DNA from: Candidatus Jettenia sp.
GTDB taxonomy: Bacteria; Planctomycetota; Brocadiia; Brocadiales; Brocadiaceae
DNA: 64,000 nucleotides
Assembly: GCA_021650895.1 (NCBI GenBank)
Contig: CP091278.1
Span: 1,579,659-1,643,658 of the forward strand
Reading direction: 5' to 3'
Below are positions 9,407-64,000 of this stretch, piece after piece. The position numbers and the translations under genes are program-made. Position 1 is the stretch's first letter. Every line of letters begins with the position of its first letter. The notes beneath the pieces are model-generated. The model searched no databases and was not told the DNA's origin. It saw nothing but the letters and a program-made list of their open reading frames with translations.

Positions 9407-9681
9407 GTCATTATTTCCTTGCAAAATTTTTCCCTATATTTTCTGCTATCAAGGATAAGAAAAATACGTGCCAATACATCAAGAATGGATAAAAATAATT
9501 AAATTCTGAATTTACTCATAAAAATTGCGCTGAAAGGATTCCTGTACATTTCAATTGATAAATTATTTCGAGCAAGTAAAATGTTAAAGATTAATTTGGT
9601 TATTAATGAATAATAGTGTGGTCTTTTAACCCCTTAAGTCATGATTACACAAGTTATGGCATATCAAAAGGAGGTATTTCT

Positions 9682-34423: not shown

Positions 34424-36247
34424 ATGCCATTATTTGATTGGACAGGGAATCCATGGGTAGATGCAGGAATTGCAGCTTTGTGTATCTTACAAAAAAAAGA
34501 CATTCCTGAATATCTGACATTAGATGATTGCAAAGGGGCTGCGGGTTTTATCAAAGTACTTTATCCCAAATGGGCAGCTAGGGGGCATGGTTTTGTAAAA
34601 ATATTTCACAATCTTCCAGCATTTAATACCAGTGTTGAACAGCCTGATAGTCTAAAAGAAGAATTAAGAAAACTAAAAGAAAAACTTGCTTCTGAACTGA
34701 ATATTAAATTAAAAATGGTTAGTAAAACTAGGCAATTTAAAGAACAATCTAAAGAAGTTCGCAAACGTCATGTAACAAATGACTACAAGCTTTCGGTATT
34801 CGAGAGAAGGTATACAGAATTTATTGATGATATGGTTGCTAAACTCGAAACCATTGGGAGTGGACATACATGCATTGCCACAGGTCAACATGAGGCAAAA
34901 ATTTTATTACAACGTGATAAATATCCACTTCTCGGCAGTGGAGATATGGTAAATTATTTCTCTTTCTTTGATGAAGGGTTAAGATTTTCTTACAATGCTA
35001 CTTTTGCTGTGCAATTTGCACCCTTAGCAATACTGGAAGTAAGTGACGAAGTTAAGAAAACGACTAAAGGAAAGAAAAAAGAAAATGAAGACGTTGAAAC
35101 TAAGAAAAAGAAACAAACTAGACTTTTTTTAGCCCACTCTCATGATGAAAGGATTCTCTTGAATGAGATAGTGGGTATTTTGTCTAATTCAATAAAGCAT
35201 TTTAAAAAAGCACTTTCACAAAACACCGAGATAAGTTTTTATAGCCCTCCGATTAAATCGCGTAACTTGAGCGAGGGAGCAGTTAGATTAGCAGAATACT
35301 TTATTGGAAACTCTGATGACTTAATAAGTGATACTGGAATAGCTATTCGTCTGTATTCATTCAGCAATGCTGGGCAACATGCAAATGTTAGTTTTGTTGA
35401 TTTGCCAGCTTCAATTTATCGCTTTATGTCAAAAGCACGGCGTTTTGCTTACTTTAATAACCTTAAAGATTTTTTCTCAAATTTACAATGGAATGAGTAT
35501 GAAAAGTTTGTTGAGGGGGAATCGATTACATATAAGTTTTTTGATAAAGAAAATAATCGCCTTAGAACAGATTGGAAACTTTTCGAACTTTATCTTACGG
35601 AGATTGAAGAAATGCCTCATCAAGACTTACAGACAATTGCTTATGCTGGTACACAGTTCTATCGGCATATAAAGACAATAAATCAAAAACCCTTAAAAGA
35701 ACTTGAGCAGATTGGGAAAGGGAAGTTCGGGGAATACAAACGACTTTTATTGAGTGTCCATAAACAAACACCTCTATGCACAGTCGAACAATTTCAAATT
35801 CTTGCTCCAGATGTTGAGTCAGAAGAAATCAAAAATTGGCTTTTAATACGAGATTTGATTCTTTTCCGAATTTATGAATGCCAACATAATGAACAACTTG
35901 CAGCAGAAAAAATATTACTTCCACAAATTGATAGTAAACTCTCCCCAAGACTACAAGCTCAAATTGAAGTTGCAGATAGGATATATGAGTATTGTATTAT
36001 GCAAAATCATAGAAGCCGGTTAAAAGAATTTGAAAGTGTTGAGAAGAGTTTTCAAGATTTTTTTACTGTGCTGGTTGCATTGCAAAGGGAGTGTTTTATT
36101 TGTTCGACTGAAGAGTTGGAAATACTTTTTCCAAAAGCCGATAATGGTCAAATTTTATGGAAAGATACCAAGAATACTATTATGTTTAGAATTTATGAAT
36201 GTGTTCATAAAACTAACTTACAATCTAATCGCAAGGAGGTTTTATAA
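34424..36247 (+). CDS. cas8b1: Type I-B Cascade large subunit Cas8b1 (Cst1)
   Basis: This is the large subunit of the I-B (Tneap) interference complex, about 607 residues, which reads the PAM and helps recruit Cas3. The N-terminus PLFDWTGNPWVDAGIAALCI is diagnostic of Cst1. Further on are RDKYPLLGSGDMVNYFSFFDEGLRFSY and the helical C-terminal part. The two CxxC pairs seen in many Cst1 proteins are not visible; only HTCIATGQHE stands at the expected place, so zinc binding may be lost. ATG 34424 follows AAGGAG at six bases. The stop overlaps the cas7 start by one base (TAATG). Confidence 0.9.
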   Translation: MPLFDWTGNPWVDAGIAALCILQKKDIPEYLTLDDCKGAAGFIKVLYPKWAARGHGFVKIFHNLPAFNTSVEQPDSLKEELRKLKEKLASELNIKLKMVSKTRQFKEQSKEVRKRHVTNDYKLSVFERRYTEFIDDMVAKLETIGSGHTCIATGQHEAKILLQRDKYPLLGSGDMVNYFSFFDEGLRFSYNATFAVQFAPLAILEVSDEVKKTTKGKKKENEDVETKKKKQTRLFLAHSHDERILLNEIVGILSNSIKHFKKALSQNTEISFYSPPIKSRNLSEGAVRLAEYFIGNSDDLISDTGIAIRLYSFSNAGQHANVSFVDLPASIYRFMSKARRFAYFNNLKDFFSNLQWNEYEKFVEGESITYKFFDKENNRLRTDWKLFELYLTEIEEMPHQDLQTIAYAGTQFYRHIKTINQKPLKELEQIGKGKFGEYKRLLLSVHKQTPLCTVEQFQILAPDVESEEIKNWLLIRDLILFRIYECQHNEQLAAEKILLPQIDSKLSPRLQAQIEVADRIYEYCIMQNHRSRLKEFESVEKSFQDFFTVLVALQRECFICSTEELEILFPKADNGQILWKDTKNTIMFRIYECVHKTNLQSNRKEVL

Positions 36248-37458
36248 TGAGAACTTTAACAGGAATAATTTTAATTGATGCAGGACATTCTGCCTTAAAC
36301 AATGCTGGATCTGTCCGTGAAGGACAAGGTAAAACTCGAATGAATGTTAAAAAAGTATCCTTAAAGAATGGTTCACTTCCGTATGTTTCACCACAAGCCT
36401 TTCGGTATTGGTGGCGAAATACAATTGCAGAAGAAAGTCATATTGATGGTCATGGGTGGAGTCTTTCACCAATTGTTAGAGGAGAAAAAACTGCATTTAC
36501 ACAAGGTAATCCTGTGGTTCATGAAGACGATGACATTTTTGGGTATATGCTAGCGATTTCGGCGGATGAAGAAACTGAGGGTACTGTTAATCGCCGTATT
36601 GCTCCATTAAAATGTTCTCCATTGCTTTCAATTCTTAAGAATGTAATTGTTTTGGATGAAGCCTCAATGATGCGTCAGGAAGGTGGTTTTATAACAAACA
36701 ATGATGGGATACGTGAAGAAGTTCCAGGAAATGCAGTGCGTTACAAGCAAGAGTGGTATGCAACAATTTTACAAGGAGTATTTTCTCTTACGCTGGATGC
36801 TGTGGGAGTTTTTGATATTGGAAATGGATACGATATTAATGAATCTATAAGACAAATTGCAATTGGACAAGGTGCGAGAGAAGAAAATCTGCCTACAGGC
36901 ACCCAAAACGAAGCAAATACACCTATTATCAGAAATCGTGTTGTTCTTCCTATAAGTACTCGCAGACAACGAATAGTTGATACTATTAAATCACTTGCCT
37001 TGCTTCGTGGTGGTGCAAAATTGACTCCGTACCTTACAGATACAAAACCCAAATTTGTTATTACAGCAGTTCTGTCATGTTCAAACCATATCTTTATGGA
37101 GCTTGTGCGAGAAGTTAATGAAAATGCCTTTTTCGATACCGAGGCGTTTAAAGAAGTGATAAGAAACTTTGGGGATAGAATCATTAGTCCAGTCTACGTT
37201 GGATGGGACAAAGGATTTTTGGCAGATCAAAGAACATCATTCAGTAATTATTTTACCGATACTGATAGTGGAAAAACCTTACGAATAACTACAAATTCTG
37301 AAACTAATCGACGCCAGATTGATTTTGCAGAGGGTCAAAGGCCAGAGGGTGCAATTGATATTCAAATAAGCTTTGGCAGTGTCAGAGATGTTCTTGAAGA
37401 AGCCTCACTATTTATTTCTACGACAATTTTGCTAGAACCGTCTCAGGAGAGGCACTAA
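36247..37458 (+). CDS. cas7: Type I-B Cascade backbone protein Cas7 (Cst2/DevR family)
   Basis: This RAMP-fold protein of 403 residues coats the crRNA spacer. Family signs are the start MRTLTGIILIDAGHSALNNAG, then SLPYVSPQAFRYWWRNTI (where the thumb region begins) and TNDTSGKT-like segments (ITPVYVGW: SPVYVGWDKGF), with NRRQIDF near the end. The length is near the usual for Cst2/DevR. The start overlaps the cas8 stop by one base and its own stop overlaps the cas5 start by one base, so the Cascade genes are one tightly coupled unit. Confidence 0.9.
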   Translation: MRTLTGIILIDAGHSALNNAGSVREGQGKTRMNVKKVSLKNGSLPYVSPQAFRYWWRNTIAEESHIDGHGWSLSPIVRGEKTAFTQGNPVVHEDDDIFGYMLAISADEETEGTVNRRIAPLKCSPLLSILKNVIVLDEASMMRQEGGFITNNDGIREEVPGNAVRYKQEWYATILQGVFSLTLDAVGVFDIGNGYDINESIRQIAIGQGAREENLPTGTQNEANTPIIRNRVVLPISTRRQRIVDTIKSLALLRGGAKLTPYLTDTKPKFVITAVLSCSNHIFMELVREVNENAFFDTEAFKEVIRNFGDRIISPVYVGWDKGFLADQRTSFSNYFTDTDSGKTLRITTNSETNRRQIDFAEGQRPEGAIDIQISFGSVRDVLEEASLFISTTILLEPSQERH

Positions 37459-41844: not shown

Positions 41845-42354
41845 ATGAATAGCTCTCTGCATAATATCCGCTTCACCGGTACCCAAATTAACTACTTCTT
41901 TCTTTGCAAGAAAAAGCTCTGGTACTTTTCCCATGATATCCAGATGGAACAGAATAGCGATGCCGTCTACCTCGGAAAGCTGATTCATGAGACGTCGTAT
42001 GAACGGGAGAAGAAGGAGATTGATATTGATGATACTATCAAGATCGATTTCATCGGGAACGACAGGGTTATTCATGAGGTGAAGAAATCTGATAAGGTAG
42101 AAGAACCGCATATCTGGCAGTTGAAGTATTACCTCTGGTATCTGAAGCAGAAAGGTGCTGATGGTATTACCGGCAAGATAAATTATCCTAAACTGAGAAA
42201 GACCCTGGACGTGTTCTTAGAACCGGAGGATGAGGAAAGGATTCAATCAATTTTAAAGGAGATACAGGATATTATAAATGCTGAATTACCGCCATCGGTA
42301 GAGCGGATGAGGATGTGTAAGAGTTGTAGTTATGGGGATATTTGCTGGGTGTGA
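41845..42354 (+). CDS. cas4: CRISPR adaptation exonuclease Cas4
   Basis: This 169-residue RecB-like nuclease helps pick and trim prespacers so that they carry the right PAM. The first cysteine is in INYFFLCKKKLWYF; the C-terminal cluster CKSCSYGDIC supplies the other three Fe-S ligands. The nuclease motifs are LGKLIHE (His), IDFI (Asp), HEVKKSDK (ExK) and IWQLKYYLWYL (QxxxY). All are intact. It starts about 25 bp behind the 7-nt inverted element. Confidence 0.9.
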   Translation: MNSSLHNIRFTGTQINYFFLCKKKLWYFSHDIQMEQNSDAVYLGKLIHETSYEREKKEIDIDDTIKIDFIGNDRVIHEVKKSDKVEEPHIWQLKYYLWYLKQKGADGITGKINYPKLRKTLDVFLEPEDEERIQSILKEIQDIINAELPPSVERMRMCKSCSYGDICWV

Positions 42355-42369
42355 TGAGGCTGTGTAGAA

Positions 42370-42435
42370 GGATTCAGAATACAGGAGTCAGAAGACAGAA
42401 TCCAGGAGACAGAACTCAGAAGTCAGAAGTCAGGA
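42370..42435 (+). repeat. 7-nt repeat cluster, left flank of the second four-helix gene
   Basis: The units are GATTCAGAAT, ACAGGAGTCAGAAGACAG, AATCCAGGAGACAG, CTCAGAAGTCAGAAGTCAGG. These are degenerate TCAGAAG/TCAGGAG units in the plus orientation. Confidence 0.82.
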
Positions 42436-42470
42436 ACAAAAATATGGGAGTGAAGAGAAAGGAGTGTGAT

Positions 42471-42839
42471 ATGGAGAGGTTGCCGGCAAAAAGTTTTCAA
42501 GATCTGATTGTTTGGCAAAAGGCTCATCAATTTGTATTAGCTGTTTACCGTTTCAGCGAAGACTTTCCTAAAAAAGAGTTGTATGGGTTAATATCTCAAA
42601 TAAGGAGATCTGCGGTTTCTATTGCAGCAAATATTGCTGAAGGGTTTAAGAAAAAGACCAGGGCTGATAAAGTACGGTTTATGAATATTTCTCAAGGTTC
42701 CCTGAAAGAGTGTAGATACTATTTAATCTTAGCAGAGGATCTCAAATATGGTAATGGTTTAAAGTTAGTGTCACAGCTTGAAGAAGTCAGCAAATTATTA
42801 GAATCATACTCTACTTCTATTCTAAAGTCTTATTTATAA
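42471..42839 (+). CDS. Four-helix-bundle protein, 23S rRNA IVP/Avd-like (copy 2)
   Basis: This 122-residue protein has SFQDLIVWQKAHQFVLAVYR, YGLISQIRRSAVSIAANIAEGF and ECRYYLILAEDL: the complete four-helix core without extra tail. It is related to copy 1 (32864) at the family level, but the two are strongly diverged, so this is not a recent duplication. AAAGGAG at seven bases fixes ATG 42471. The gene sits between cas4 and cas1, bracketed by 7-nt repeat clusters in opposite orientation. No reverse transcriptase or rRNA is close. Confidence 0.88.
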   Translation: MERLPAKSFQDLIVWQKAHQFVLAVYRFSEDFPKKELYGLISQIRRSAVSIAANIAEGFKKKTRADKVRFMNISQGSLKECRYYLILAEDLKYGNGLKLVSQLEEVSKLLESYSTSILKSYL

Positions 42840-42914: not shown

Positions 42915-43906
42915 ATGAAACAAAACTACTACATCTTTAACAACGGCCGCCTGAAACGGCAGGAGAATACGATCTTCTTTGAAAAGGAAGATGGTTCGAA
43001 GTCCATTATTCCTATCGAGAACACAGAAGCCCTTTACGCCTTTGGGGAGATTGACTTCAATACCAAACTCTTCAATTATCTGGCGCAGAAAAGTATACCG
43101 GTGCATGTCTTTAACTATTACGGATTTTATTCAGGCAGCTATTATCCCGCGAATATTTAAACTCGGGACAACTCCTGGTAAAGCAGGTGAACCATTACGC
43201 AAGCCGTCAAAAGAGGATTGCGCTTGCAAGGGCATTTGTGGATGCAGCCAGTTTTAATATCCTGAAGAATCTGAGATATTACAGTAATAGAGGCAAGGAA
43301 TTAGACGAATATATTAATACGATTGAAGGATTCAAGGCACAGGTCGATAAAATAGAATCAGTTGAAGAGTTGATGGGACTTGAGGGGAATATCCGAAATA
43401 CCTACTATAAGGCATGGCCTATAATTATTGACCAGGAGATAGAATTCGAACGCAGGGTGAAACAGCCGCCCGATAATATGATCAATGCCCTTATCTCATA
43501 TCTGAATTCAATGGTTTATACAACATGCCTTGGTGAAATATACCATACCCAGTTAAGTCCACTTATCTCATATCTCCATGAACCGGGAGATCGCAGATTT
43601 TCATTAAGTTTAGACTTGGCTGAAATATTTAAACCCATTTTTAGTGATAGAACGATATTTACCCTACTGAACAGGCAACAAATTACCGAGAAGGACTTTA
43701 TGACGGAAGTAAATCTCTGTTACCTTAATGAGAAGGGAAGAAAGGTCGTAATCAAAGAGTATGATGAAAGACTGAAAACCGTGATAACTCATAAGAGACT
43801 TGAGAGACAGGTCTCTTATCGGTACTTAATAAGACTGGAATGCTATAAGCTGGTTAAACATATTATTGGTGAGCAGGAGTATGAGGGATTTAAAATCTGG
43901 TGGTGA
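42915..43906 (+). CDS. cas1: CRISPR integrase Cas1, interrupted by one frameshift
   Basis: Cas1 with Cas2 inserts new spacers at the leader end. The first frame gives MKQNYYIFNNGRLKRQENTI to NYYGFYSGSYYP and stops at 43158-43160. The rest (REYLNSGQLLVKQVNHYASR onward) reads one frame over, beginning with CGC at 43148. One lost C (CCCC to CCC at 43146-43148) explains it; with it restored the protein has about 331 residues. The catalytic residues are present: Glu in ALISYLNSMVYTTCLGEIYH (N/E region), His in SPLISYLHEPGDRRFSLSLDLAEIF and the Asp in DLAE. If the shift is real, adaptation is off. Confidence 0.88.
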
Positions 43907-44733: not shown

Positions 44734-47700
44734 CTTTCATTGAACCTATAAGGAATTGAAACTTAGAAAAGGGGGATTATACAAGGAGTTGGATAATGCT
44801 TTCATTGAACCTATAAGGAATTGAAACATAGTAGGGACACGGAGCACCGTGTCCGTACTAGGCTTTCATTGAACCTATAAGGAATTGAAACTATCAAAGA
44901 TGAAATAGACCTTGCGAAAAAGCAGATTCTTTCATTGAACCTATAAGGAATTGAAACTAGGCCGGAAGGCCATGCCAGCCGTCTTGAACTACTTTCATTG
45001 AACCTATAAGGAATTGAAACCATCTTGTATGCCTGCTCTATCGAGGTTCCTTTCGGCTTTCATTGAACCTATAAGGAATTGAAACGGAAGCGAAAAACTG
45101 GATTGGAAAGGGAGTGTACGCTTTCATTGAACCTATAAGGAATTGAAACGTGTACATTAACGTTAGAACATTTTACGATGTTTGCCTTTCATTGAACCTA
45201 TAAGGAATTGAAACTCCGCTGGAAAAGCATAATCGGATGCGGGGGGGAACTTTCATTGAACCTATAAGGAATTGAAACGAAAAGCTTAAAGGTAAATGAG
45301 CATTTGCGTCACCGCCTTTCATTGAACCTATAAGGAATTGAAACTCCATACTGGAGATGCGTAATTTTGCCATACAGACACTTTCATTGAACCTATAAGG
45401 AATTGAAACTTCAACGGCGGGATAATATATAAAACAGGAGAAGAACTTTCATTGAACCTATAAGGAATTGAAACGGGAATTACTCTTACTCGCTAATCTC
45501 AATCCAGGAAGCTTTCATTGAACCTATAAGGAATTGAAACCACTTCTTTCTTGATACTCAATACCTTCAGATGCATCTTTCATTGAACCTATAAGGAATT
45601 GAAACCTGCGACGGGAAGGGAGACTTCTATGCCGTCCCGCCGCTTTCATTGAACCTATAAGGAATTGAAACGAAGCGGTCCGGCAAAAATTTATCGGGGA
45701 AATGGCCTTTCATTGAACCTATAAGGAATTGAAACAGGGAGGTTCGATGGTGATGATTAATAATCTCATCTTTCATTGAACCTATAAGGAATTGAAACAT
45801 TCATCTGCGGGAGACGAGATCACCGCGGCCGACCTTTCATTGAACCTATAAGGAATTGAAACTCGGTATGGCAGAAGATCGCCATGCTCGTGCCCTCCTT
45901 TCATTGAACCTATAAGGAATTGAAACTCATTAATCCATCAACCGTTTTCCCTTTACTTACTACTTTCATTGAACCTATAAGGAATTGAAACGGGAGAGGC
46001 GGGCGAATACATGAACCGCAAGGAGGCCTTTCATTGAACCTATAAGGAATTGAAACTTATCACACGAGTACTGGGAGGGCACGGTGGATAACCTTTCATT
46101 GAACCTATAAGGAATTGAAACACGACAACACCGACAAAGGTCAGATAGTTCGTGAGGCTTTCATTGAACCTATAAGGAATTGAAACAACGAATACGAAAT
46201 CGCTCTGTACGCACTTGCTCCCTTTCATTGAACCTATAAGGAATTGAAACCAGCTAAACGCATGGAGAAGGAAGCAAATAAGATGTCTTTCATTGAACCT
46301 ATAAGGAATTGAAACGCCGAAGGTCAACATTGGCGGAATTTACCAGATTGCTTTCATTGAACCTATAAGGAATTGAAACACGTGTAAAAAACACGCTGAG
46401 ATAACAAAACAACTGCTTTCATTGAACCTATAAGGAATTGAAACAGGGATCCGGGGAAGTCGGAAATCAATAAGTTAAGTCTTTCATTGAACCTATAAGG
46501 AATTGAAACGTATTGGAGCGGATTGCAAAGGAATACGGTACCGCCTTTCATTGAACCTATAAGGAATTGAAACCGTGGTTTCATGTCTTATACAGATGTG
46601 GCAACGACACCTTTCATTGAACCTATAAGGAATTGAAACGCATCACCATAGGGGCAGATTTTAGACAATCCTCACCTTTCATTGAACCTATAAGGAATTG
46701 AAACGGAGATAGAATCAGTTCTCTGTTGGTATGGGCAGCCCTTTCATTGAACCTATAAGGAATTGAAACTATGAAATTAAGACAAGCAGCAACTACGGGA
46801 TACACCTTTCATTGAACCTATAAGGAATTGAAACTTGGTATACTAGGGAAGTATGAGCAAAACTGTGAACTTTCATTGAACCTATAAGGAATTGAAACAT
46901 GTCTCGGCACGTTAAGCCTTCTAAGGACTTCGCTCTTTCATTGAACCTATAAGGAATTGAAACGATGCTGCTGTCCACCTGAATATCACGCAGAAAACTT
47001 TCATTGAACCTATAAGGAATTGAAACGGAGAAGGAAGAGAAAAAGGAGACGGTACAAGAAAGCTTTCATTGAACCTATAAGGAATTGAAACGTCAACCGC
47101 ACCGGTTGGCATCAAAGGTACATTGTACTTTCATTGAACCTATAAGGAATTGAAACTCAGAAAGTTACCACATCGGCAAGGGATTACGAAATACTTTCAT
47201 TGAACCTATAAGGAATTGAAACGTCTTGACGGCCTGTTTGGTACATTCGTGAAGTACTTTCATTGAACCTATAAGGAATTGAAACTTGAAAAAACCTGAA
47301 GGCTACGTCTTCGCAAACCCGCTTTCATTGAACCTATAAGGAATTGAAACGCAGTAGATGAAGGGGCTACAGTGGTAACTGTAGAGCTTTCATTGAACCT
47401 ATAAGGAATTGAAACTCGTAAATCCGTACATCTTGCACCATGCGACTGTCCTCTTTCATTGAACCTATAAGGAATTGAAACAAGATTGACCCTAACGAAG
47501 TTGCCTGGGATGATACTCTTTCATTGAACCTATAAGGAATTGAAACAAAAGGGTAATTTACAAGTGGACGACTGGGGCGAGCTTTCATTGAACCTATAAG
47601 GAATTGAAACACCATTGCGCAGTTAAAGTTGTATGCAAATAAGTACACTTTCATTGAACCTATAAGGAATTGAAACAACTGGCGAACCGCGGGAAATAGG

Positions 47701-50700
47701 CAGGAAAGATGCTTTCATTGAACCTATAAGGAATTGAAACGGAGATAGAATCAGTTCTCTGTTGGTATGGGCAGCCTCTTTCATTGAACCTATAAGGAAT
47801 TGAAACGGCGAAAGCTGAGTAAACACTGAACTGAATGGAGGACTTTCATTGAACCTATAAGGAATTGAAACGAGGAAGCTGGGCGACGTACTGGGAATTA
47901 GGAGGAACCTTTCATTGAACCTATAAGGAATTGAAACTGAGACCTCAAGTGCACAGATTTGTTGCAGCTCCTACTTTCATTGAACCTATAAGGAATTGAA
48001 ACCTGGAGGGAACACAGACCGGTGAGCTGGTCTACACCTTTCATTGAACCTATAAGGAATTGAAACGCTCAATTAGCGGAATTGTTCTTTCAAATCCAAA
48101 AACTTTCATTGAACCTATAAGGAATTGAAACGCAGAAGCAAGACACAGCAAGCAATCTCTTTCAGACCGACTTTCATTGAACCTATAAGGAATTGAAACC
48201 TGCCAGGGTGCCCACATCCCATCTCCTAGCGGCCTTTCATTGAACCTATAAGGAATTGAAACCTTGGAAGAGGGGAAGAATTTAGGATTTGTAGAAAACT
48301 TTCATTGAACCTATAAGGAATTGAAACAAAACCTTGAAGAATGGCGCAAACACTATAACAATCCTTTCATTGAACCTATAAGGAATTGAAACGGGAAAGT
48401 CATCTATCTTACTTCAAATATTGGCCTGCTTTCATTGAACCTATAAGGAATTGAAACAACAACCGCTCTTTGAGTTCACAGAGGAGAACGTAGACTTTCA
48501 TTGAACCTATAAGGAATTGAAACGCAATCTTTGCGAAAAGATAGATCCGATCCGGGGGACTTTCATTGAACCTATAAGGAATTGAAACGGAGATGAACTT
48601 CTTATTCATGGAGGGATTTACACTTTCATTGAACCTATAAGGAATTGAAACTAAAATAAGACCATGCGGGAAGTTATTAGATTTATATACTTTCATTGAA
48701 CCTATAAGGAATTGAAACTTGAAACATTTTGGTTATTTTGTGGTCTACTTTATCCTTTCATTGAACCTATAAGGAATTGAAACTGCGGAGGTGCTCATAT
48801 GAAAACAGGAAGATTCCAACTTTCATTGAACCTATAAGGAATTGAAACTATCATCTGGCGGTTTGAAATGCGTAACGCAGATTGCCTTTCATTGAACCTA
48901 TAAGGAATTGAAACACATCATCTTCTTTTACCCCAACCACACCTGCAGCTCTTTCATTGAACCTATAAGGAATTGAAACACTTAGTAACGATAAAATAAT
49001 GGAGGTAGGTACCAATCTTTCATTGAACCTATAAGGAATTGAAACTAAGGAGATGAAAGAATTTTTTGAAAGTCTCAGGGCCTTTCATTGAACCTATAAG
49101 GAATTGAAACGAACTGTTCTGGCCCTCTTGGAAGAGGGGAAGAATTCTTTCATTGAACCTATAAGGAATTGAAACAACGTAAAATCCATCCTCTGGACTG
49201 CGGCGAATAACTTTCATTGAACCTATAAGGAATTGAAACAACAGGGTTATCAGTCATTAAATTGTATTGAATAAACTTTCATTGAACCTATAAGGAATTG
49301 AAACGGGAAAATTTAGATATTGAAACGTCTGATAATAATCTTTCATTGAACCTATAAGGAATTGAAACTATATCTCTGCAGCTTCTTCTCAAGAGGGATC
49401 AACTTTCATTGAACCTATAAGGAATTGAAACCAAAAATACTGTTGTCAAGCCAGTACAGCTTACCAGCCTTTCATTGAACCTATAAGGAATTGAAACATT
49501 TTCTCAAAAGTGTTATGTGAGAAGTATAGCTTGCTTTCATTGAACCTATAAGGAATTGAAACCAATTAAAAAACATGTCAACAGATTTCGACGAAAAGGC
49601 TTTCATTGAACCTATAAGGAATTGAAACAAAGGGGAAGATGCGATAATGTCTGTTGTTTATTACCTTTCATTGAACCTATAAGGAATTGAAACGTGAAAA
49701 AACAAATCCCACGCCCTTAAACCTTTATCTTTCATTGAACCTATAAGGAATTGAAACTATTTTCCTTGTTCAAGAAAATAATCAAAAATTAACTTTCATT
49801 GAACCTATAAGGAATTGAAACCGATGAAATCACCCCTCTATCGCATTTCTCACAGCCCTTTCATTGAACCTATAAGGAATTGAAACATTTTACGTGTGTT
49901 GAGGATGGAGTATAAATGAGTGTCTTTCATTGAACCTATAAGGAATTGAAACTCTTAATTCGTCCGTTTTCCTCTTCTGCTGCGTACTCTTTCATTGAAC
50001 CTATAAGGAATTGAAACTTCTTAAAATTCTTTGCATGAGGATAGGCCTCAAGCTTTCATTGAACCTATAAGGAATTGAAACTTCTTAAAATTCTTTGCAT
50101 GAGGATAGGCCTCAAGCTTTCATTGAACCTATAAGGAATTGAAACCCGTGAGAACACTACGAAAATATTGTTGTCAAGTCAGCTTTCATTGAACCTATAA
50201 GGAATTGAAACGCTTACAATGTGGTTCTGTGATGATTCCCTGCTTACCTTTCATTGAACCTATAAGGAATTGAAACTGCCGTATCTGAACATTGAAACAA
50301 CACCTTGTTTCGCTTTCATTGAACCTATAAGGAATTGAAACGCATTATAAACCTGCTGGAAGGCATACGCAGCATTCTTTCATTGAACCTATAAGGAATT
50401 GAAACAGGTACTCGGCTACAGTACGCATATCAACGTTGTTCCTTTCATTGAACCTATAAGGAATTGAAACACATCGTCTTGATTGTACGATTTACAAGTA
50501 TCAGCACTTTCATTGAACCTATAAGGAATTGAAACATCGGGTAGAGTACTTGCTTGTTTAATCCTTTTCTTCTTTCATTGAACCTATAAGGAATTGAAAC
50601 ATGTTAAGGACGGTATAACAGGTCTTTGGAATGCCTTTCATTGAACCTATAAGGAATTGAAACGCGGAAGGGCCGCAGAGGTACTTTCTGATGTGCTGCT

Positions 50701-53700
50701 TTCATTGAACCTATAAGGAATTGAAACATGACAATCGAAGAATGGTATAAAAAACGATTCGACCTTTCATTGAACCTATAAGGAATTGAAACTAAGCTCA
50801 AGGCGCTGGGAATCATCACCAAAGCGGACTTTCATTGAACCTATAAGGAATTGAAACAAGCGATTAAGAATTGCCCTTTTTTCTAGTGACAAACTTTCAT
50901 TGAACCTATAAGGAATTGAAACGACAGTACCGTCTTGTTTCAGCGCAATACTGTGGTCTTTCATTGAACCTATAAGGAATTGAAACTGATTTAAACATGG
51001 AGATATCACGCATTACCTCTTTACTTTCATTGAACCTATAAGGAATTGAAACCAATATAACTCCAGGTATCGCATCACCAGTGGCAGCTTTCATTGAACC
51101 TATAAGGAATTGAAACGCCCGGGACGGAACAAGGTAAGACTCAGAACCACGACTTTCATTGAACCTATAAGGAATTGAAACAACAACTCGACCAGCAGCC
51201 TACCGTCTGGATGGGTGGCTTTCATTGAACCTATAAGGAATTGAAACACAGTAAAGATTTCTGGTATTACGATAAAGGGTGACTTTCATTGAACCTATAA
51301 GGAATTGAAACTCCGAATGAAATCGATAAATTTGTTCATGAGATAACTTTCATTGAACCTATAAGGAATTGAAACGTCATACAGCCTTGGCCTCATCCAG
51401 GCAGCCAGGCCTTTCATTGAACCTATAAGGAATTGAAACGGTGAAGAATGGAGCGGCAGAGACGGATTACACCACCCTTTCATTGAACCTATAAGGAATT
51501 GAAACTGGGTATGATATCGAGCATTGAGGCATTTCCGGGAACTTTCATTGAACCTATAAGGAATTGAAACGATGAAGCTCGATACCACACAACCGCAAGA
51601 GGCCATCTTTCATTGAACCTATAAGGAATTGAAACGTGTTTTTATGGGGACCACCAGGCATCGGAAAAAGCCTTTCATTGAACCTATAAGGAATTGAAAC
51701 TTGAAGGGTAAATGGTACTCTCCGTCACGGAAAACCTTTCATTGAACCTATAAGGAATTGAAACCGAGGAATACGAAGAACATCACGGCATGATCGCCAA
51801 CCTTTCATTGAACCTATAAGGAATTGAAACGAGTTCAAACTTCCGGAATTTAAATTCGATAAATTCCCTTTCATTGAACCTATAAGGAATTGAAACTCAA
51901 CATTCGAGACAATTTCAATATCATGATCAGCTTTCATTGAACCTATAAGGAATTGAAACGAACCAGAAACCTGAAACCCAGGTCAGTTCCCCCTGGCTTT
52001 CATTGAACCTATAAGGAATTGAAACTTATGAGGATATAGGTGGATGGTTTTTGTTTTGTCTTTCATTGAACCTATAAGGAATTGAAACATAAAATCCTTT
52101 GAGTCTTCAAGCCTTACGATCTTTCTTTCATTGAACCTATAAGGAATTGAAACAGAGGGGATAAAGGGGTGGGTAGATGCGGAGGAAACTTTCATTGAAC
52201 CTATAAGGAATTGAAACACCTACCACGACCCCCGTTGTGGAAGGCTCTTATGCCTTTCATTGAACCTATAAGGAATTGAAACTCTAATAGTCCGTTTGCA
52301 TCAGCAATCGGGATCTTCTTTCATTGAACCTATAAGGAATTGAAACATGGCGACCTCCTGGCCGCCCCCGAATCAAACCTCATCTTTCATTGAACCTATA
52401 AGGAATTGAAACTCATCTATTGCGATGCAAGGGTGGCAAATGTCGAGCTTTCATTGAACCTATAAGGAATTGAAACTGCTATGGCGGGCGGGATCGAGAT
52501 TAAGGAGTATTCTTTCATTGAACCTATAAGGAATTGAAACCAGCAACAAAACCTTTGGCATCATCCCCAACAACCGCCTTTCATTGAACCTATAAGGAAT
52601 TGAAACTACAATCACCCTCGATAGTACCACACCCGCCCAGATCCTTTCATTGAACCTATAAGGAATTGAAACGGATATTAACAGCCGTGTAGTGCAAGAC
52701 CCTGCAAGCTTTCATTGAACCTATAAGGAATTGAAACAAATTATAATAATTGCTTGTTGAGAAAAAAAACAAACTTTCATTGAACCTATAAGGAATTGAA
52801 ACTGTGTGCCACAAACACAAAGACCTAACATAAAGGTACTTTCATTGAACCTATAAGGAATTGAAACAGTAGCAATCGCAGAAACAATAATTGCAAATGC
52901 TTCCCTTTCATTGAACCTATAAGGAATTGAAACTTACTTGAAGATGAAAATACAATAATAAAGTGTACGCTTTCATTGAACCTATAAGGAATTGAAACCA
53001 CATTATTTGCTTCATCGAACGTGAAATATTTACCTTTCATTGAACCTATAAGGAATTGAAACGAGACTTACTCTGAATGGTATTTAGAAGCAAAGTTATC
53101 TTTCATTGAACCTATAAGGAATTGAAACTCATTATCGATACCATCCGTACACTTTATTATTGTACTTTCATTGAACCTATAAGGAATTGAAACCCAGCAG
53201 CGATCTTGTTTGTGGTGTTTGCCTTTTGACTTTCATTGAACCTATAAGGAATTGAAACTCTTTCCAGCCACAATTCAAGCACAGACCTGTTTTCCTTTCA
53301 TTGAACCTATAAGGAATTGAAACCAGATTAAATCTGCAATTAGAGATGTAACCGCTAATCTTTCATTGAACCTATAAGGAATTGAAACCAGTTTTACTTC
53401 TTCTTTACACCCGGAGCATGTGATCTTTCATTGAACCTATAAGGAATTGAAACGATATGTACGGCGGATTTGGAACAGCTTTAAGCTTCTTTCATTGAAC
53501 CTATAAGGAATTGAAACTCTGGTTTCTAAGTACCTCGTACACCCACACCAGGCTGCTTTCATTGAACCTATAAGGAATTGAAACGAATAAAATGATCGGC
53601 GTCTCAAAGGGATGCAGCACCTTTCATTGAACCTATAAGGAATTGAAACAATTTTAGCCGCAGTGTTTTATCGTTTGCATTGTTCCTTTCATTGAACCTA

Positions 53701-56700
53701 TAAGGAATTGAAACTTGCTCAATGTAACGTCATAGATTTCTGCTAGCTGCCTTTCATTGAACCTATAAGGAATTGAAACTACAAAGATTACTCGTATTAA
53801 GCTCCAACTCTTTGCTTTCATTGAACCTATAAGGAATTGAAACCAAATATAACAACCGGATAGTTATAGATAGTCTCCCTTTCATTGAACCTATAAGGAA
53901 TTGAAACGATTTTGCTTAGCTAATTCCCTTGAGTACTTCATCTTTCATTGAACCTATAAGGAATTGAAACCTCTAACGCATTGAGTATGCGGTCATGGAG
54001 CTGCTCCTTTCATTGAACCTATAAGGAATTGAAACTTTTTAACTTTCTCGACATTCATATTGTATGATTTCTTTCATTGAACCTATAAGGAATTGAAACT
54101 GATAATGCCGTTCGATCGTTAACCCCTCTGCCGTCCTTTCATTGAACCTATAAGGAATTGAAACAAGCTAATTTCATGATTTTCAACTTGCGCATCGTAA
54201 GCTTTCATTGAACCTATAAGGAATTGAAACCCACATAGAGATAGTTTTCATCAACCGCCAATCCATCCTTTCATTGAACCTATAAGGAATTGAAACTGGA
54301 AACATGGAATTGCACTAAAAGGTTTCGGCGCCTTTCATTGAACCTATAAGGAATTGAAACTCTCAAGTGATTGGGACGAACGGACTGAACTATAGCCTTT
54401 CATTGAACCTATAAGGAATTGAAACGTTCAAGAATCCAGTGGCGTAGGAAACAACAGCCATGCTTTCATTGAACCTATAAGGAATTGAAACCTGTTTTTG
54501 CGACAAAGTTACACACGTCGCAATACCCTTTCATTGAACCTATAAGGAATTGAAACCACCTATGACAACCTCTCCGAATATATCCTTCCTCCTCTTTCAT
54601 TGAACCTATAAGGAATTGAAACAGATTTGACATCTTGTTATACGCATCTTCGTAAGGACTTTCATTGAACCTATAAGGAATTGAAACTCATCCCTTTCAA
54701 TTTTTATTGAATTGTTTATGATACTTTCATTGAACCTATAAGGAATTGAAACAAACACGGTCTAAAGACCTTGCTATATCTTACACTCCTTTCATTGAAC
54801 CTATAAGGAATTGAAACTGATGAGATCACACCGAAATTGCTCGAAGAATATAGACTTTCATTGAACCTATAAGGAATTGAAACGGAAGATACCTTATCAA
54901 GAAATTTCATTGACAAGATCTTTCATTGAACCTATAAGGAATTGAAACGAGACTGAGTTTAAAGCGGGAGGATGGGACGCAGGCTTTCATTGAACCTATA
55001 AGGAATTGAAACAGAATAGATGAGGTTTTGACGGTAAGGAAAAGAACTTTCATTGAACCTATAAGGAATTGAAACGCAGCCCCTTCACGGCCGGGGGCAT
55101 GGCGCCAAGATACTTTCATTGAACCTATAAGGAATTGAAACTTTTGACCTTCACCCCTGACAAGTCTTGTTTTGCTCCCTTTCATTGAACCTATAAGGAA
55201 TTGAAACTACTGTATGGGGCAAGCGTGTACAGGGCTATTTCGTACTTTCATTGAACCTATAAGGAATTGAAACGCAGAAGAAGGAACATTTCATTGCCCA
55301 TACGCTCTTCTTTCATTGAACCTATAAGGAATTGAAACTCGGGAGAAGAAGCGTGGTTTGGAGCATCCTTATACTTTCATTGAACCTATAAGGAATTGAA
55401 ACGGAGATAGAATCAGTTCTCTGTTGGTATGGGCAGCCCTTTCATTGAACCTATAAGGAATTGAAACGGCTAAAATTGCTTTCGACTTTGAAAAAAAGCA
55501 ATTCTTTCATTGAACCTATAAGGAATTGAAACATCAAACAAATGTTGGTTAGTATTTCTGGATGATCAGCTTTCATTGAACCTATAAGGAATTGAAACCT
55601 TAAATAACAAACAAAACAATATTTCAAGGAAATGCTTTCATTGAACCTATAAGGAATTGAAACACCATTGTACCGTTTGTTGAAGCACAAGAAGGGGCAA
55701 CTTTCATTGAACCTATAAGGAATTGAAACAATCAAAGATATCGAAATTGGCAAAGTTCAATTATCCTTTCATTGAACCTATAAGGAATTGAAACAACAGA
55801 AAAGGAGAGACGTGGGAGGGGGATATATATGCTTTCATTGAACCTATAAGGAATTGAAACATACAAAATAGTTGGAAAGGTTGTAAAAGTGTGGAGCTTT
55901 CATTGAACCTATAAGGAATTGAAACTCGGCAACATCAAGTGGCGCTAACTCATCAGACTCTCCTTTCATTGAACCTATAAGGAATTGAAACGACAGACGC
56001 CCTCAACCAGTTCAACCGGGGCGATAGCTTTCATTGAACCTATAAGGAATTGAAACATGACGGGATGGTCTGGGCGCGGCCATTTGGCGACCACTTTCAT
56101 TGAACCTATAAGGAATTGAAACTATTTACACAGGGCTATTACGAAGAAGAGATACTGCTTTCATTGAACCTATAAGGAATTGAAACTAAGAGGAATCTTG
56201 AAGAATTGAGTTTTTCTATAGGCTTTCATTGAACCTATAAGGAATTGAAACGGGGAAGGGTATTCCTGCATCGGCATCTGAACAGGCTTTCATTGAACCT
56301 ATAAGGAATTGAAACAAAAGCAAATAGCCTATGGTGATTCGTTTGGTAAATCTTTCATTGAACCTATAAGGAATTGAAACGCGAGCGGATGAAGGGTATG
56401 GATGTGCAGGAAAGACCTTTCATTGAACCTATAAGGAATTGAAACGAGATAGTATTAGTGGCAACCCATGACTGGTATGGCAGCTTTCATTGAACCTATA
56501 AGGAATTGAAACACGTATGAGAGTACGATACCTCCTGTACTCCTTTCGGCCTTTCATTGAACCTATAAGGAATTGAAACGCCTCAACGGGTGCGCCTTGT
56601 CTGACGATTGGGTGCTTTCATTGAACCTATAAGGAATTGAAACGTGGATGGCTCTCAAGATTGTGCTCCTGCTCCTGCTCTTTCATTGAACCTATAAGGA

Positions 56701-59700
56701 ATTGAAACTATTTTTTGAGTTGTTTAAAGGTGCATTCCTCGTCTTTCATTGAACCTATAAGGAATTGAAACATCATTTAACTGTAGACCGGAAGACTGTG
56801 CTGACTGCTTTCATTGAACCTATAAGGAATTGAAACCTATTTGTTCTTCTGTATCAATAGCCTTCCCCGCCTCCTTTCATTGAACCTATAAGGAATTGAA
56901 ACGTTTTTGTGCAAGTAAACATCTTTATCTTTATCTTCTTTCATTGAACCTATAAGGAATTGAAACCAGACAAGGAAAAGGTTCTTGTGGGCGATATCGA
57001 GCCTTTCATTGAACCTATAAGGAATTGAAACCCGGCAAGCGGGGCTGTGGTGCTGATGGTGCGGTTTGCTTTCATTGAACCTATAAGGAATTGAAACCAG
57101 TAAGTCCCGGTTGCTGTACCCATAGTGGCGTCCTGCTTTCATTGAACCTATAAGGAATTGAAACTTTTTCGATACTGTGTTGGCAGTTCGCCAATATCAA
57201 TCTTTCATTGAACCTATAAGGAATTGAAACTAATAAAGGGACATGGGAGTGGTTCTGGTTTGCAACCTTTCATTGAACCTATAAGGAATTGAAACGTATT
57301 ACCATCAAAGGGGAAACGGGAAAGACCTTACCTTTCATTGAACCTATAAGGAATTGAAACGGTCTATAATCTGGTTCTTGAGTTGCGAGATCTGTTCTTC
57401 TTTCATTGAACCTATAAGGAATTGAAACAGAAAGTTTTCAAGGGCTTTCATGATAGAGGCGCGCCTTTCATTGAACCTATAAGGAATTGAAACTACGAAC
57501 AGGCTCTATGTACCATCGAGCACAGACAGCTTTCATTGAACCTATAAGGAATTGAAACTCATGAGGAGAACGAAGAAAATCATATGAAAGAGAACTTTCA
57601 TTGAACCTATAAGGAATTGAAACGTATAATTGCCTGGGGTGTTGGTGTTTCAATAAACCTTTCATTGAACCTATAAGGAATTGAAACTTTTTTATGGAGT
57701 TTACAGGTGTGAAGATAGCATACTTTCATTGAACCTATAAGGAATTGAAACCACCCAGGCACAACATCGTAATGACAACCCTTTTTCACTTTCATTGAAC
57801 CTATAAGGAATTGAAACCGATTTTAAATCCGCATCTGCCCAGCCAGCACCCTTCTTTCATTGAACCTATAAGGAATTGAAACTTGTTAATTTTCGTAATC
57901 ATTATAATCCCCCATATCTTCTTTCATTGAACCTATAAGGAATTGAAACCTATATGGGCACCGCAGGCGCTCCGGCGCAGCAGGCTTTCATTGAACCTAT
58001 AAGGAATTGAAACAGCTAACCGCTATTGAAAAAGCAAAGGCAAGTAAAACCTTTCATTGAACCTATAAGGAATTGAAACAAGATTAACTAACAAAATCAT
58101 CGACAGCCCCTGTACTTTCATTGAACCTATAAGGAATTGAAACATATTGCCGATACCCCGCCGGTAGCATACCAGACCTTTCATTGAACCTATAAGGAAT
58201 TGAAACGGCGATGAAGTTGATGAGTTCCATGTTTGGTTCTGTCTTTCATTGAACCTATAAGGAATTGAAACGAGTCTGTTTATGTGTACTTGTTCTCACG
58301 GTTAAGGCCTTTCATTGAACCTATAAGGAATTGAAACGTCGTTGATTTTTCAGTCATAACTTTTCTCTCTATCCTTTCATTGAACCTATAAGGAATTGAA
58401 ACGTATCCCTTAACCTTACAACTGCTCTGGCTGGCGCTCTTTCATTGAACCTATAAGGAATTGAAACTCTGAGAGAGATTCCTTCAGCGTTCTCAAAGCA
58501 TCGCTTTCATTGAACCTATAAGGAATTGAAACATGCTGTGGGCCTGAAAGTTACAGACCTTTGGCCGAACTTTCATTGAACCTATAAGGAATTGAAACCA
58601 TTATATGCCCGGCATCGCTCAAAATTAACTGGAAGCTTTCATTGAACCTATAAGGAATTGAAACGAAGCTTACCTTCCCGCGCCACACCAGCAGCGCCTT
58701 CCTTTCATTGAACCTATAAGGAATTGAAACGGCTTAACAATGTGTGACACCTGCAAACATCTGGAGGCTTTCATTGAACCTATAAGGAATTGAAACGGCA
58801 TATAGAAATGAGGTGGCCTTGCTCAAGGCAAAGCTTTCATTGAACCTATAAGGAATTGAAACAAGCAACCCTCTCCCTCGTGGCAAACGATCGAATGGCT
58901 TTCATTGAACCTATAAGGAATTGAAACTACTATTTACGATTCTCTTTTAACAAACTTTTCCTTCTTTCATTGAACCTATAAGGAATTGAAACCATCAAGC
59001 GTTACCTTTGATTTTACCTTGCAGTTGGCCTTTCATTGAACCTATAAGGAATTGAAACTAACTCCACCTGCGCCTCACGGCAAACATCTTCCCCCTTTCA
59101 TTGAACCTATAAGGAATTGAAACATAAGGCATTGTACAGACAAACCTTAAATCAATTTCTTTCATTGAACCTATAAGGAATTGAAACCACTGACACTCAC
59201 ACTAAATTCATAAGTCTCAGCCTTCTTTCATTGAACCTATAAGGAATTGAAACCAACGAGCAGGAGAGAAAAAGGGTTGAAACACAGCTTTCATTGAACC
59301 TATAAGGAATTGAAACGGTGTAAATTCAAAGGCAATGGGCGGCGTTCCTACTCTTTCATTGAACCTATAAGGAATTGAAACTGGAGATAATCCTGACTTT
59401 TCGGGAAGAGTTCTCCCTTTCATTGAACCTATAAGGAATTGAAACTGAAGAAACATACAGAATTTCAACACTTCTTATACTTTCATTGAACCTATAAGGA
59501 ATTGAAACGTCTACCGTATCCGCATACGCCCATTCCCATTCCCTTTCATTGAACCTATAAGGAATTGAAACAAATAATGAATATAGCAATCATTATCTGT
59601 AACGAGACTTTCATTGAACCTATAAGGAATTGAAACTTGAGCGCAGGGCGATGTGCTTGGAATCGTACTCCCTTTCATTGAACCTATAAGGAATTGAAAC

Positions 59701-62700
59701 ATACCGCAAACCTTGCAGAAGGCACATACCGCTATACTTTCATTGAACCTATAAGGAATTGAAACTAGTAACCCTTTTGGTTATTACTATAATCTGTTCA
59801 CTTTCATTGAACCTATAAGGAATTGAAACCCTCAGTATTGTGTGATAGTGGGATTGGTATTTACTTTCATTGAACCTATAAGGAATTGAAACGTCGATAT
59901 ACCCCGTCACTGCCTCATCGGTAACACTACTTTCATTGAACCTATAAGGAATTGAAACTGATTTATATTCTCCTGACTGGTATTCCCAAGTGTGCTTTCA
60001 TTGAACCTATAAGGAATTGAAACGATGTTTCATTATTGTAATACTAATTTCAAACAATACTTTCATTGAACCTATAAGGAATTGAAACAAGGTTGTGTAC
60101 CGGAAGGTGAGTGATGCGGAGCGGGCTTTCATTGAACCTATAAGGAATTGAAACAAAAAAATCGTAAAGTAATAAAAAAGGCACAAGGCTTTCATTGAAC
60201 CTATAAGGAATTGAAACCACCTTGACGGCCTTCAGTTGATCTATTCGCATCTTCTTTCATTGAACCTATAAGGAATTGAAACGGTCGGATGTAAAACCTA
60301 CCAATACATTTAGTGGACTTTCATTGAACCTATAAGGAATTGAAACCTGTGAATAGGTGGCAAATGTTTCTGCCAAATAGGACTTTCATTGAACCTATAA
60401 GGAATTGAAACGGCTTGTTCTTGTAAAAGGCCTTCTGCATGTCCCTCTTTCATTGAACCTATAAGGAATTGAAACGAACGCCGCCTTTTTTTCTCTAATC
60501 GGCCCTGACCTTTCATTGAACCTATAAGGAATTGAAACTTAGAAGTAATGCAAAAGATAAACCTAGTAAATTGGCTTTCATTGAACCTATAAGGAATTGA
60601 AACTCTTCTAGGTAGGTGATTAATGAGATACTTAATATTCTTTCATTGAACCTATAAGGAATTGAAACGATCAAGCTTTTGCTGCGCTGTCTGGAGTTTT
60701 TCAGCTTTCATTGAACCTATAAGGAATTGAAACCAGAAAGAGCGCAAGACATACGATAGTTGCGATAAACTTTCATTGAACCTATAAGGAATTGAAACTT
60801 ACGTGCATGGTCTTGCTTCCTGAGCTTGCAAATCCTTTCATTGAACCTATAAGGAATTGAAACTATCCGTCCAGGCTAAAGAGCTGAATGACTTTTCAGC
60901 CTTTCATTGAACCTATAAGGAATTGAAACTTTCAAGGGCAGTGTTATCGTCAAGGTGATGATAGTTCTTTCATTGAACCTATAAGGAATTGAAACGAGAA
61001 GAAGACCGGGACGTTGAGTGCTGGTGGGAGCTTTCATTGAACCTATAAGGAATTGAAACGTGAGCTGGTCTACACAATTGATGCCCCAGTCTCGCCTTTC
61101 ATTGAACCTATAAGGAATTGAAACTATTTACTCTACAACAGAACGTGTTGTTGAAGAGAAACTTTCATTGAACCTATAAGGAATTGAAACAATTCAAAAT
61201 ATACCTCATCTTTTCCCTCCTCTACTTTCATTGAACCTATAAGGAATTGAAACAAGATTGGCAGTGCTGGTAATTCAGAAAAGATCACCTTTCATTGAAC
61301 CTATAAGGAATTGAAACAATAGAGCGCAATAAACAGCTCCAGAATGGCTGCCATCTTTCATTGAACCTATAAGGAATTGAAACAAATCTAGAAGCAAAAA
61401 CCAGACAGGTGGAGTTTGACTTTCATTGAACCTATAAGGAATTGAAACCAGAGAAAATGTTCGCACCGGCAGTTGAGTATATCCTTTCATTGAACCTATA
61501 AGGAATTGAAACAATGGAGAAAAGCTTTGGTACAAAAACGGCAAGCTCCTTTCATTGAACCTATAAGGAATTGAAACCTATTAGGGAGAACAAGCCTTCT
61601 TTGTTTTCTACTTCTTTCATTGAACCTATAAGGAATTGAAACCATTTACGATGTCATTCTTGTAATCATTCTTACATCTTTCATTGAACCTATAAGGAAT
61701 TGAAACAGCCCTAACACTAGCGATGATAGTTCATCGTTGTAGCTTTCATTGAACCTATAAGGAATTGAAACCGTGTTTTCGATTGTGTAGATGACTTTTG
61801 ATCTTGCCTTTCATTGAACCTATAAGGAATTGAAACGATGGTTTTCGGAATGTATGTATAAGGGAAGCATATCCTTTCATTGAACCTATAAGGAATTGAA
61901 ACAATGAAAATCGGCTCTGACCATGAGCTTTTAGGAGAACTTTCATTGAACCTATAAGGAATTGAAACTGGCTTATACTCATACGGGTCTTGAGACGCCC
62001 CTGCCTTTCATTGAACCTATAAGGAATTGAAACCGAGGAACGGCATTAGAATATTAGCGCGGGGGCGAGCTTTCATTGAACCTATAAGGAATTGAAACGG
62101 TAGATGCGAAAAGCTGCTGTTGGCCAAACAATACCTTTCATTGAACCTATAAGGAATTGAAACGAAATACAAACAATATAAAACCGTAAAAAGAATTTAT
62201 CTTTCATTGAACCTATAAGGAATTGAAACGTTTGGCTTTCAGGGATACGTAATCAGCAATAAGGCTGCTTTCATTGAACCTATAAGGAATTGAAACAGCA
62301 ATAACAGGATATATGCGGCTAAGGCGGCAAGCTTTCATTGAACCTATAAGGAATTGAAACCTGTTTGGGCGTTTTTTATTATAATAGGTAGGGGTTCTTT
62401 CATTGAACCTATAAGGAATTGAAACTTTATCGACACAATTAACTCCAATTTCATAAACTTTCTTTCATTGAACCTATAAGGAATTGAAACACAATAAGAT
62501 CATAGTTACCTAAGAAAACTAAAGAGCCTTTCATTGAACCTATAAGGAATTGAAACGAATATGTTGTACGTGCTCAGCGTCGTTCAATGCTTCTTTCATT
62601 GAACCTATAAGGAATTGAAACAAGTGTATAAGCGTCTGAGTACGGATGCGAGGAAATCTTTCATTGAACCTATAAGGAATTGAAACACAACAACAGAAGA

Positions 62701-64000
62701 TACAGAGCGAAAAGCATACCCTCTTTCATTGAACCTATAAGGAATTGAAACGAGCCTTGCCTGATCTTTGTCGATCAGCAAGTTCTCTTTCATTGAACCT
62801 ATAAGGAATTGAAACATCTCACTTTCTTCATTATTTATCTCTCCTTTCTCGTCTTTCATTGAACCTATAAGGAATTGAAACGCAGGAACCGTATAGAATC
62901 ATATGGATTGTTAGACTTTCATTGAACCTATAAGGAATTGAAACTTGTAGCCTTGTACAAGAAATATAAAAATAATCCCCTTTCATTGAACCTATAAGGA
63001 ATTGAAACGAGAGAATGAACATTGGTTTTTCGTCCAGATCGTCCTTTCATTGAACCTATAAGGAATTGAAACCGGTAAAACAAACTGCTTTCTTGCTTCT
63101 CAATCAACTTTCATTGAACCTATAAGGAATTGAAACGTTTAAGATTACAGCGCCAAAGGTGGTGTACCGGAACTTTCATTGAACCTATAAGGAATTGAAA
63201 CTCTTCATCATCGTATACTTTTCGATAAACGCCTTCACCTTTCATTGAACCTATAAGGAATTGAAACTAGCCCTTACACAGGAGCAGAAGGAAAGCAGGA
63301 TACTTTCATTGAACCTATAAGGAATTGAAACAGCTGTGGGAGCTACCGGTATGGCTGTGTTATCGTACTTTCATTGAACCTATAAGGAATTGAAACGCAG
63401 ATACACCTCTGTCTTATCCGCCAGGTAGTTCTTTCATTGAACCTATAAGGAATTGAAACAGAAAAGTTTTAAAATTATATCGGGGTATTTCTCAACTTTC
63501 ATTGAACCTATAAGGAATTGAAACGGGATGCGAAAAATGTGATAGGGGTGTGATTTCATCCTTTCATTGAACCTATAAGGAATTGAAACAGAAATCATTT
63601 GCATATGATTTCTTGCTATACGTGACTTTCATTGAACCTATAAGGAATTGAAACACCTTATAGGGGGTGGGGGTATGCGCAACTACACAACTTTCATTGA
63701 ACCTATAAGGAATTGAAACGCAAAATCAAGGCATACAAGGCTATTTTAAAATAATCTTTCATTGAACCTATAAGGAATTGAAACAGGATAACGTTGGTAT
63801 TCACCACACTAACCCCTCTGCTTTCATTGAACCTATAAGGAATTGAAACTCGTACCTGATTTTAAGGGCAAACCTATCGTACTCCTTTCATTGAACCTAT
63901 AAGGAATTGAAACATGGACTGGCAAACGGTATCTTCACGGTATCCACCCCTTTCATTGAACCTATAAGGAATTGAAACTGAACCCCGTTTGCAAACCGAA
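44734..64000 (+). CRISPR. Type I-B CRISPR array with 297 repeats in the window, not ended
   Basis: The repeat is 29 bp: CTTTCATTGAACCTATAAGG followed by AATTGAAAC. I counted 297 repeat starts line by line; the last begins at 63950 and a partial spacer runs off the window. Spacers are mostly 35-37 nt (mean unit 64.9 bp). Repeats are identical wherever I checked, including at the right edge, so the trailer end, where repeats decay, is still beyond the window. The 5' tag left by Cas6 would be ATTGAAAC. Repeated reading of the minus strand gives FQFLIGSMK/VSIPYRFNE peptides, which are not proteins. Confidence 0.99.

What the first reader, a model, noticed from the sequence alone, without database searches (positions are those of the whole stretch)
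43140..43165. cas1 broken by a single-base deletion in front of a giant array
Restoring one C at 43146-43148 rebuilds the family motif Y-Y-P-R-E-Y-L and joins both frames. An array this large needs (or needed) a working Cas1. Either inactivation is recent and the array is frozen, or it is a sequence error.
Basis: seen in the sequence. Interest (0 to 1): 0.6.

Follow-up and report, generated by a model that had tools for sequence, protein, structure and literature searches.

The report
CRISPR cas1 frameshift, probably assembly error
The CRISPR gene cas1 in this anammox bacterium reads as broken by one missing base, but the same assembly shows the same kind of missing base in genes the cell cannot live without (such as its only gyrA), so the break is almost certainly a sequencing error and not a frozen immune memory.

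Summary
At 43146-43148 the cas1 frame of a type I-B locus shifts by -1, giving an 81-codon start that stops at 43158-43160 and a 257-codon remainder. Both halves match adjacent parts of the Cas1b profile.

The likely cause is an uncorrected base deletion in the assembly, a Ca. Jettenia genome in one 3.82-Mb contig. I compared 355 ORFs (430 kb) of a sibling species with this genome. Fourteen, cas1 included, carry one 1-2-base deletion here and no other lesion. Two of these cannot be real in a living cell of this kind: gyrA (the only DNA_topoisoIV-family gene in the genome) and acsB (single copy; needed for carbon fixation). Both other Jettenia genomes keep cas1 intact at the same place. The gene shows no decay: dN/dS is about 0.04, and changes private to this lineage are 29 synonymous to 3 non-synonymous. 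The array has 335 repeats, 333 of them identical, so acquisition was active very recently.

A genuine, very recent loss of Cas1 is not excluded without reads, but I give it about 9%. The genome has two other intact cas1 genes, each beside an array with a different repeat. Low interest; treat as an artefact.

The parts
43146..43148 (+). C run at which one base is missing relative to the intact reading frame of all relatives (the exact missing position inside CCC/GCG cannot be told from sequence)
   Evidence: alignment to two sibling species
42915..43160 (+). cas1, first part (81 codons, N-terminal beta domain), ends at TAA 43158-43160
   Evidence: TIGR03641 positions 1-77, E 1e-27; PF01867
43133..43906 (+). 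cas1, second part in the -1 frame (catalytic domain; carries the E, H and E of the LEG, YLHEP and DLAEIF motifs)
   Evidence: TIGR03641 positions 74-324, E 1.3e-106; aligned to solved Cas1 7ei1/4wj0
41845..42354 (+). cas4, intact
   Evidence: TIGR00372
44041..44307 (+). cas2, intact
   Evidence: TIGR01573
31837..32754 (+). cas6
   Evidence: PF01881
34418..36247 (+). cas8b1 (Cst1-like, weak match)
   Evidence: TIGR01908, E 5e-5, above its cut-off
36247..37458 (+). cas7 (Cst2/DevR)
   Evidence: TIGR02585
37458..38099 (+). cas5
   Evidence: TIGR01895
38069..40312 (+). cas3 (HD + helicase)
   Evidence: TIGR01587, TIGR01596
44590..44733 (+). leader; motif TACATAACTGGAG(A/G)TCGACGA shared with the two sibling species
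44734..64000 (+). CRISPR array (continues to window-extended position 66434): 335 repeats CTTTCATTGAACCTATAAGGAATTGAAAC, 333 exact, one internal and the terminal one with one substitution; 334 spacers

Best explanation
The cas1 frameshift is a consensus error in the genome assembly: one base was dropped from a short C run, as happens in insufficiently polished long-read assemblies. In the organism (a Candidatus Jettenia anammox bacterium) cas1 is then an ordinary intact type I-B Cas1, working with Cas4 and Cas2 to add spacers at the leader end of the 335-repeat array. Shown: the frameshift, its restriction to this assembly, the same lesion type in essential single-copy genes, the absence of any other decay in cas1. 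Inferred: the sequencing technology, and that cas1 itself is one of the errors and not one of the few real lesions.
For: (1) Census against a sibling species (G016, about 95-96% DNA identity): 355 ORFs, 430,370 bases; 14 frameshifted in this genome, all by a single 1- or 2-base deletion; in the reverse direction 3 breaks in G016 that are not mirror images of breaks here, of 363 ORFs. Mostly shortening of short homopolymers. (2) gyrA is broken mid-gene by loss of one C from CCC (C1:2247970) and PF00521 finds no other copy, only the two halves of this one; acsB is broken (C1:1657702) and is single copy; nadB and hslU are broken too. (3) Each of the 14 genes, cas1 included, has a single persistent frame lesion and zero further in-frame stops. 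(4) cas1 is intact at the syntenic place in both other Jettenia genomes and in every close relative. (5) cas1 shows no relaxed selection: dN/dS 0.044 and 0.034 to the siblings; private codon changes 29 synonymous to 3 non-synonymous, versus 19:5 and 31:5 in the siblings. (6) 333 of 335 repeats are identical and no spacer is shared with the siblings, so acquisition ran until very recently. (7) Precedent: in re-sequenced Ca. Kuenenia all six differences in conserved genes were frameshifting indels, judged sequencing or assembly errors (PMC7709395); Nanopore systematic errors are mainly homopolymer indels (PMC8011154).
Against: No reads could be examined. Reported completeness is 99.89%, and the housekeeping genes sampled through PF00133 and PF00009 (several aminoacyl-tRNA synthetases and translation GTPases) are unbroken, so the error rate is moderate (about 1 per 31 kb of coding sequence) and the prior expectation of an error in cas1 is only 0.03. 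Some of the 14 lesions may be real, since G016 itself has about 3.
Confidence: 0.88

Rival explanations
1. The deletion is real and very recent: this strain has just lost Cas1 of its I-B system, spacer uptake has stopped, and the large array is a frozen record still used for interference.
For: The frameshift removes the normal reading frame; two other Cas1 proteins exist, which could relax the need for this one. cas1 genes are dispensable for interference (general knowledge).
Against: Same lesion type in gyrA and acsB of the same assembly; no decay in cas1; zero substitutions in the 311 leader-proximal repeats (9,019 bases) limits a freeze to roughly under 3.3e-4 neutral substitutions per site, against dS of 0.32-0.41 to the sibling species, so it would have to be caught just after the event.
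Confidence: 0.09
2. Cas1 works as two polypeptides: the break lies between the N-terminal beta domain and the catalytic domain, and the two parts assemble.
For: The break falls near the domain border; the catalytic residues are in the second part.
Against: No relative is split; the first ATG/GTG/TTG start of the second part, GTG 43187, lies well inside the conserved region and would drop residues such as SREYLNSGQLLVK; no sign of selection for a split.
Confidence: 0.02
3. Programmed -1 frameshifting or transcriptional slippage restores full-length Cas1 from the encoded sequence.
For: A C run sits at the shift site.
Against: CCC is too short for transcriptional slippage and TTATCCCGCG is not an X XXY YYZ slippery site (sequence; general knowledge); relatives encode the gene in one frame.
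Confidence: 0.01

Closest known systems
Type I-B Cas1 (Cas1b, TIGR03641) of Ca. Jettenia ecosi J2 and other Brocadiaceae
   Same: Same gene order cas4-(accessory ORF)-cas1-cas2-leader-array, same 29-bp repeat, 96% identical C-terminal part
   Different: This copy reads with a one-base deletion; the array is larger (335 repeats against 89 in J. ecosi and 10 in G016)
Homopolymer indel errors in long-read assemblies (e.g. PMC8011154, PMC12007338)
   Same: Single 1-2-base deletions, mostly in short homopolymers, that fragment otherwise perfect genes, essential ones included
   Different: Sequencing technology of this assembly is not known to us; the rate (about 1 per 31 kb coding) is moderate

Membership tests
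Cas1 (type I-B, TIGR03641) | Full-length match to the profile | tested here: met
   In two adjacent frames: positions 1-77 and 74-324 of 324
Cas1 (type I-B, TIGR03641) | Catalytic Glu, His and acidic residue | tested here: met
   Motifs LEG, SYLHEP and LDLAEIFKP align to solved Cas1 7ei1 and 4wj0; residue roles from general knowledge
Cas1 (type I-B, TIGR03641) | Adjacent cas2/cas4 and a CRISPR array with leader | tested here: met
Cas1 (type I-B, TIGR03641) | One uninterrupted reading frame | tested here: not met
   Stop at 43158-43160 in the deposited sequence; judged a sequence error
Genuine pseudogene | Relaxed selection or further lesions | tested here: not met
   dN/dS 0.034-0.044, 29:3 private syn:non-syn codon changes, zero extra stops
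Genuine pseudogene | Lesion present in independent reads or strains | not testable with these tools
   No reads held; no second genome of this species found
Assembly error | Same lesion type in genes that cannot be broken in a living cell | tested here: met
   gyrA and acsB, both single copy
Assembly error | Excess of frame lesions over a sibling genome, one lesion per gene | tested here: met
   14 of 355 against 3 of 363 ORFs; one persistent frame lesion each

The most novel reading that the evidence does not exclude
The deletion is real: a strain with a 334-spacer I-B array lost its Cas1 only very recently, giving a natural frozen snapshot of an otherwise fast-turning-over array.
Probability: 0.09. 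Interest if true: 0.35.

Novelty: not a real feature. Interest (0 to 1): 0.1.

Why it matters
If the frameshift were taken at face value, this organism would be annotated as having a dead adaptation module beside a giant array, and similarly as lacking gyrase A and acetyl-CoA synthase. The finding is a warning that pseudogene calls from this assembly are unreliable. If it were real it would be a snapshot of an array frozen just after loss of Cas1.

Tried and rejected
Looking for the broken junction or the repeat in viral contigs found nothing; the array has no near match in the phage collection. hzsA was first thought decisive because one copy is broken, but the genome holds a second intact copy in a 4.9-kb duplication that is 99.96% identical, so it was dropped as proof. 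G016 contig 4 beyond about 540 kb is not syntenic with the G000 stretch chosen, so the census was re-aimed at contig 2. Essential genes sampled through PF00133 and PF00009 were intact, which fits a moderate error rate but adds no support. Splitting of Cas1 and programmed frameshifting were considered and found without support in relatives.

Full report
What was claimed.

From ATG 42915 the frame reads MKQNYYIFNNGRLKR...SGSYYPANI and stops at 43158-43160. The -1 frame continues ...SREYLNSGQLLVKQ... to the stop at 43906. The two parts match positions 1-77 and 74-324 of the 324-position type I-B Cas1 profile TIGR03641. The second part carries the catalytic motifs LEG, YLHEP and DLAEIF and aligns to solved Cas1 structures. 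Around it lie cas6, cas8b1-like, cas7, cas5, cas3, cas4 and cas2.

The array. It runs from 44734 past the window end to 66434 in window-extended coordinates: 335 repeats of 29 bp, 333 identical, one internal and one terminal with a single substitution, 334 spacers, two of them present twice.

The organism. The window lies in a 3,822,769-base single-contig genome (G000). Its closest named match is Ca. Jettenia ecosi J2 (96% identical protein), and two other genomes of its genus are held: G016 (4.1 Mb, 4 contigs) and G017 (3.9 Mb, 220 contigs; from its contig and coordinates the J. ecosi record, inference). It is therefore an anammox bacterium of the genus Jettenia.

The frameshift is private to this assembly. 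In all relatives in which the gene was read upstream, and in every close relative of the family search, the frame is open through this site. In G016 and G017 the gene sits at the syntenic place with the same repeat and a similar leader. The arrays differ greatly in size (G016 10 repeats, G017 89, G000 335) and share no spacer, so the locus turns over quickly.

No sign of decay. Between G000 and the siblings cas1 has dN/dS of 0.044 and 0.034; codon changes private to G000 are 29 synonymous and 3 non-synonymous, against 19:5 and 31:5 for the siblings. The 311 leader-proximal repeats (9,019 bases) show no substitution. If repeats drift neutrally after a freeze, the 95% bound is about 3.3e-4 substitutions per site, some three orders of magnitude below dS. 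Purifying selection or recombination between repeats would weaken this bound. So Cas1 was working until very recently, or still works.

Is the assembly sound? This was tested by a census. ORFs of at least 150 codons from 1.2 Mb of G016 were aligned to 0.98 Mb of G000 (at least 90% identity and 90% coverage). Of 355 ORFs (430,370 bases), 14 are frameshifted in G000, all by a single 1- or 2-base deletion, mostly in short homopolymers. In the reverse direction five breaks were listed in 363 ORFs, two of which mirror breaks of G000, leaving three. Each of the 14 genes has one persistent frame lesion and no further in-frame stop. A looser earlier census also found a few insertions in G000, for example in the SEC-C gene of this window.

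Two of the broken genes settle the matter for the assembly. One is DNA gyrase subunit A, broken at C1:2247970 by loss of a C from CCC; the family PF00521 finds only the two halves of this one gene in the genome. The other is the acetyl-CoA synthase gene (NF040764), broken at C1:1657702 and single copy. Anammox bacteria fix carbon by the Wood-Ljungdahl pathway (PMC6828613), and gyrase A is essential in bacteria (general knowledge). nadB and hslU are broken too. Hence at least part of these single-base deletions are errors, and the cas1 deletion is of exactly that kind. The same conclusion was drawn for six frameshifting indels in a re-sequenced Ca. Kuenenia (PMC7709395). Uncorrected homopolymer indels in protein-coding genes are the known systematic error of Nanopore-only assemblies (PMC8011154); which technology made this assembly is not known to me.

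How likely for cas1 itself. The rate is about one per 31 kb of coding sequence, or 0.03 expected per cas1-sized gene. The sibling has 3 lesions where this genome has 14, so about four fifths of the lesions here are in excess. The lack of decay in cas1 and the fresh array raise this further. I put the error at 0.88, a genuine recent loss at 0.09, and a split or recoded Cas1 at 0.03 together.

Other Cas1 proteins. The genome holds an intact type I-C cas1 (L016:11352-12383, with cas4, cas7, cas8c, cas5, cas3) and a third intact cas1 (L017:9447-10430, with cas6 and cas2). Their arrays have unrelated 36-37-bp repeats, so rescue of the I-B array in trans is unlikely (inference).

Verdict. Not a real feature; low interest.

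Noticed in passing
window 31133 (ORF 30173-31183, - strand): Another private lesion: 2-base deletion in a gene that is 357 codons long and intact in both sibling species (weak match to a double-GTPase family).
   Followed up: partly
window about 40998 (ORF 40952-41680): A one-base insertion in a T run truncates a SEC-C protein that has 297-298 codons in both siblings; another probable sequence error.
   Followed up: partly
G000:C1:2247970 and C1:1657702 (outside the window): The genome's only gyrA and only acsB are frameshifted by single-base deletions in the assembly.
   Followed up: yes
G000:C1:581 kb (L168:11327-16221) and C1:1876 kb (L119/L120): A 4.9-kb stretch with the hydrazine synthase alpha gene is present twice at 99.96% identity; one copy of hzsA carries a one-base insertion.
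   Followed up: partly
spacer 216 of the I-B array and L017:11883-11907: A spacer of the I-B array and a spacer of the third CRISPR array overlap by 25 identical bases, so two CRISPR systems of one cell appear to have sampled the same target.
   Followed up: no
L017:9447-11522 and L083: A full cas1 is followed by a second, shorter cas1-like gene (278 codons, match mainly in the N-terminal part) and a cas2; J. ecosi has a similar cas1 plus short cas1-like pair (281-codon open frame).
   Followed up: no
window 42342-42839 and L025 about 9240-9616: Between cas4 and cas1 this genome has a four-helix-bundle (23S rRNA IVP) ORF where J. ecosi has an unrelated ORF: a variable slot inside the adaptation module.
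   Followed up: no
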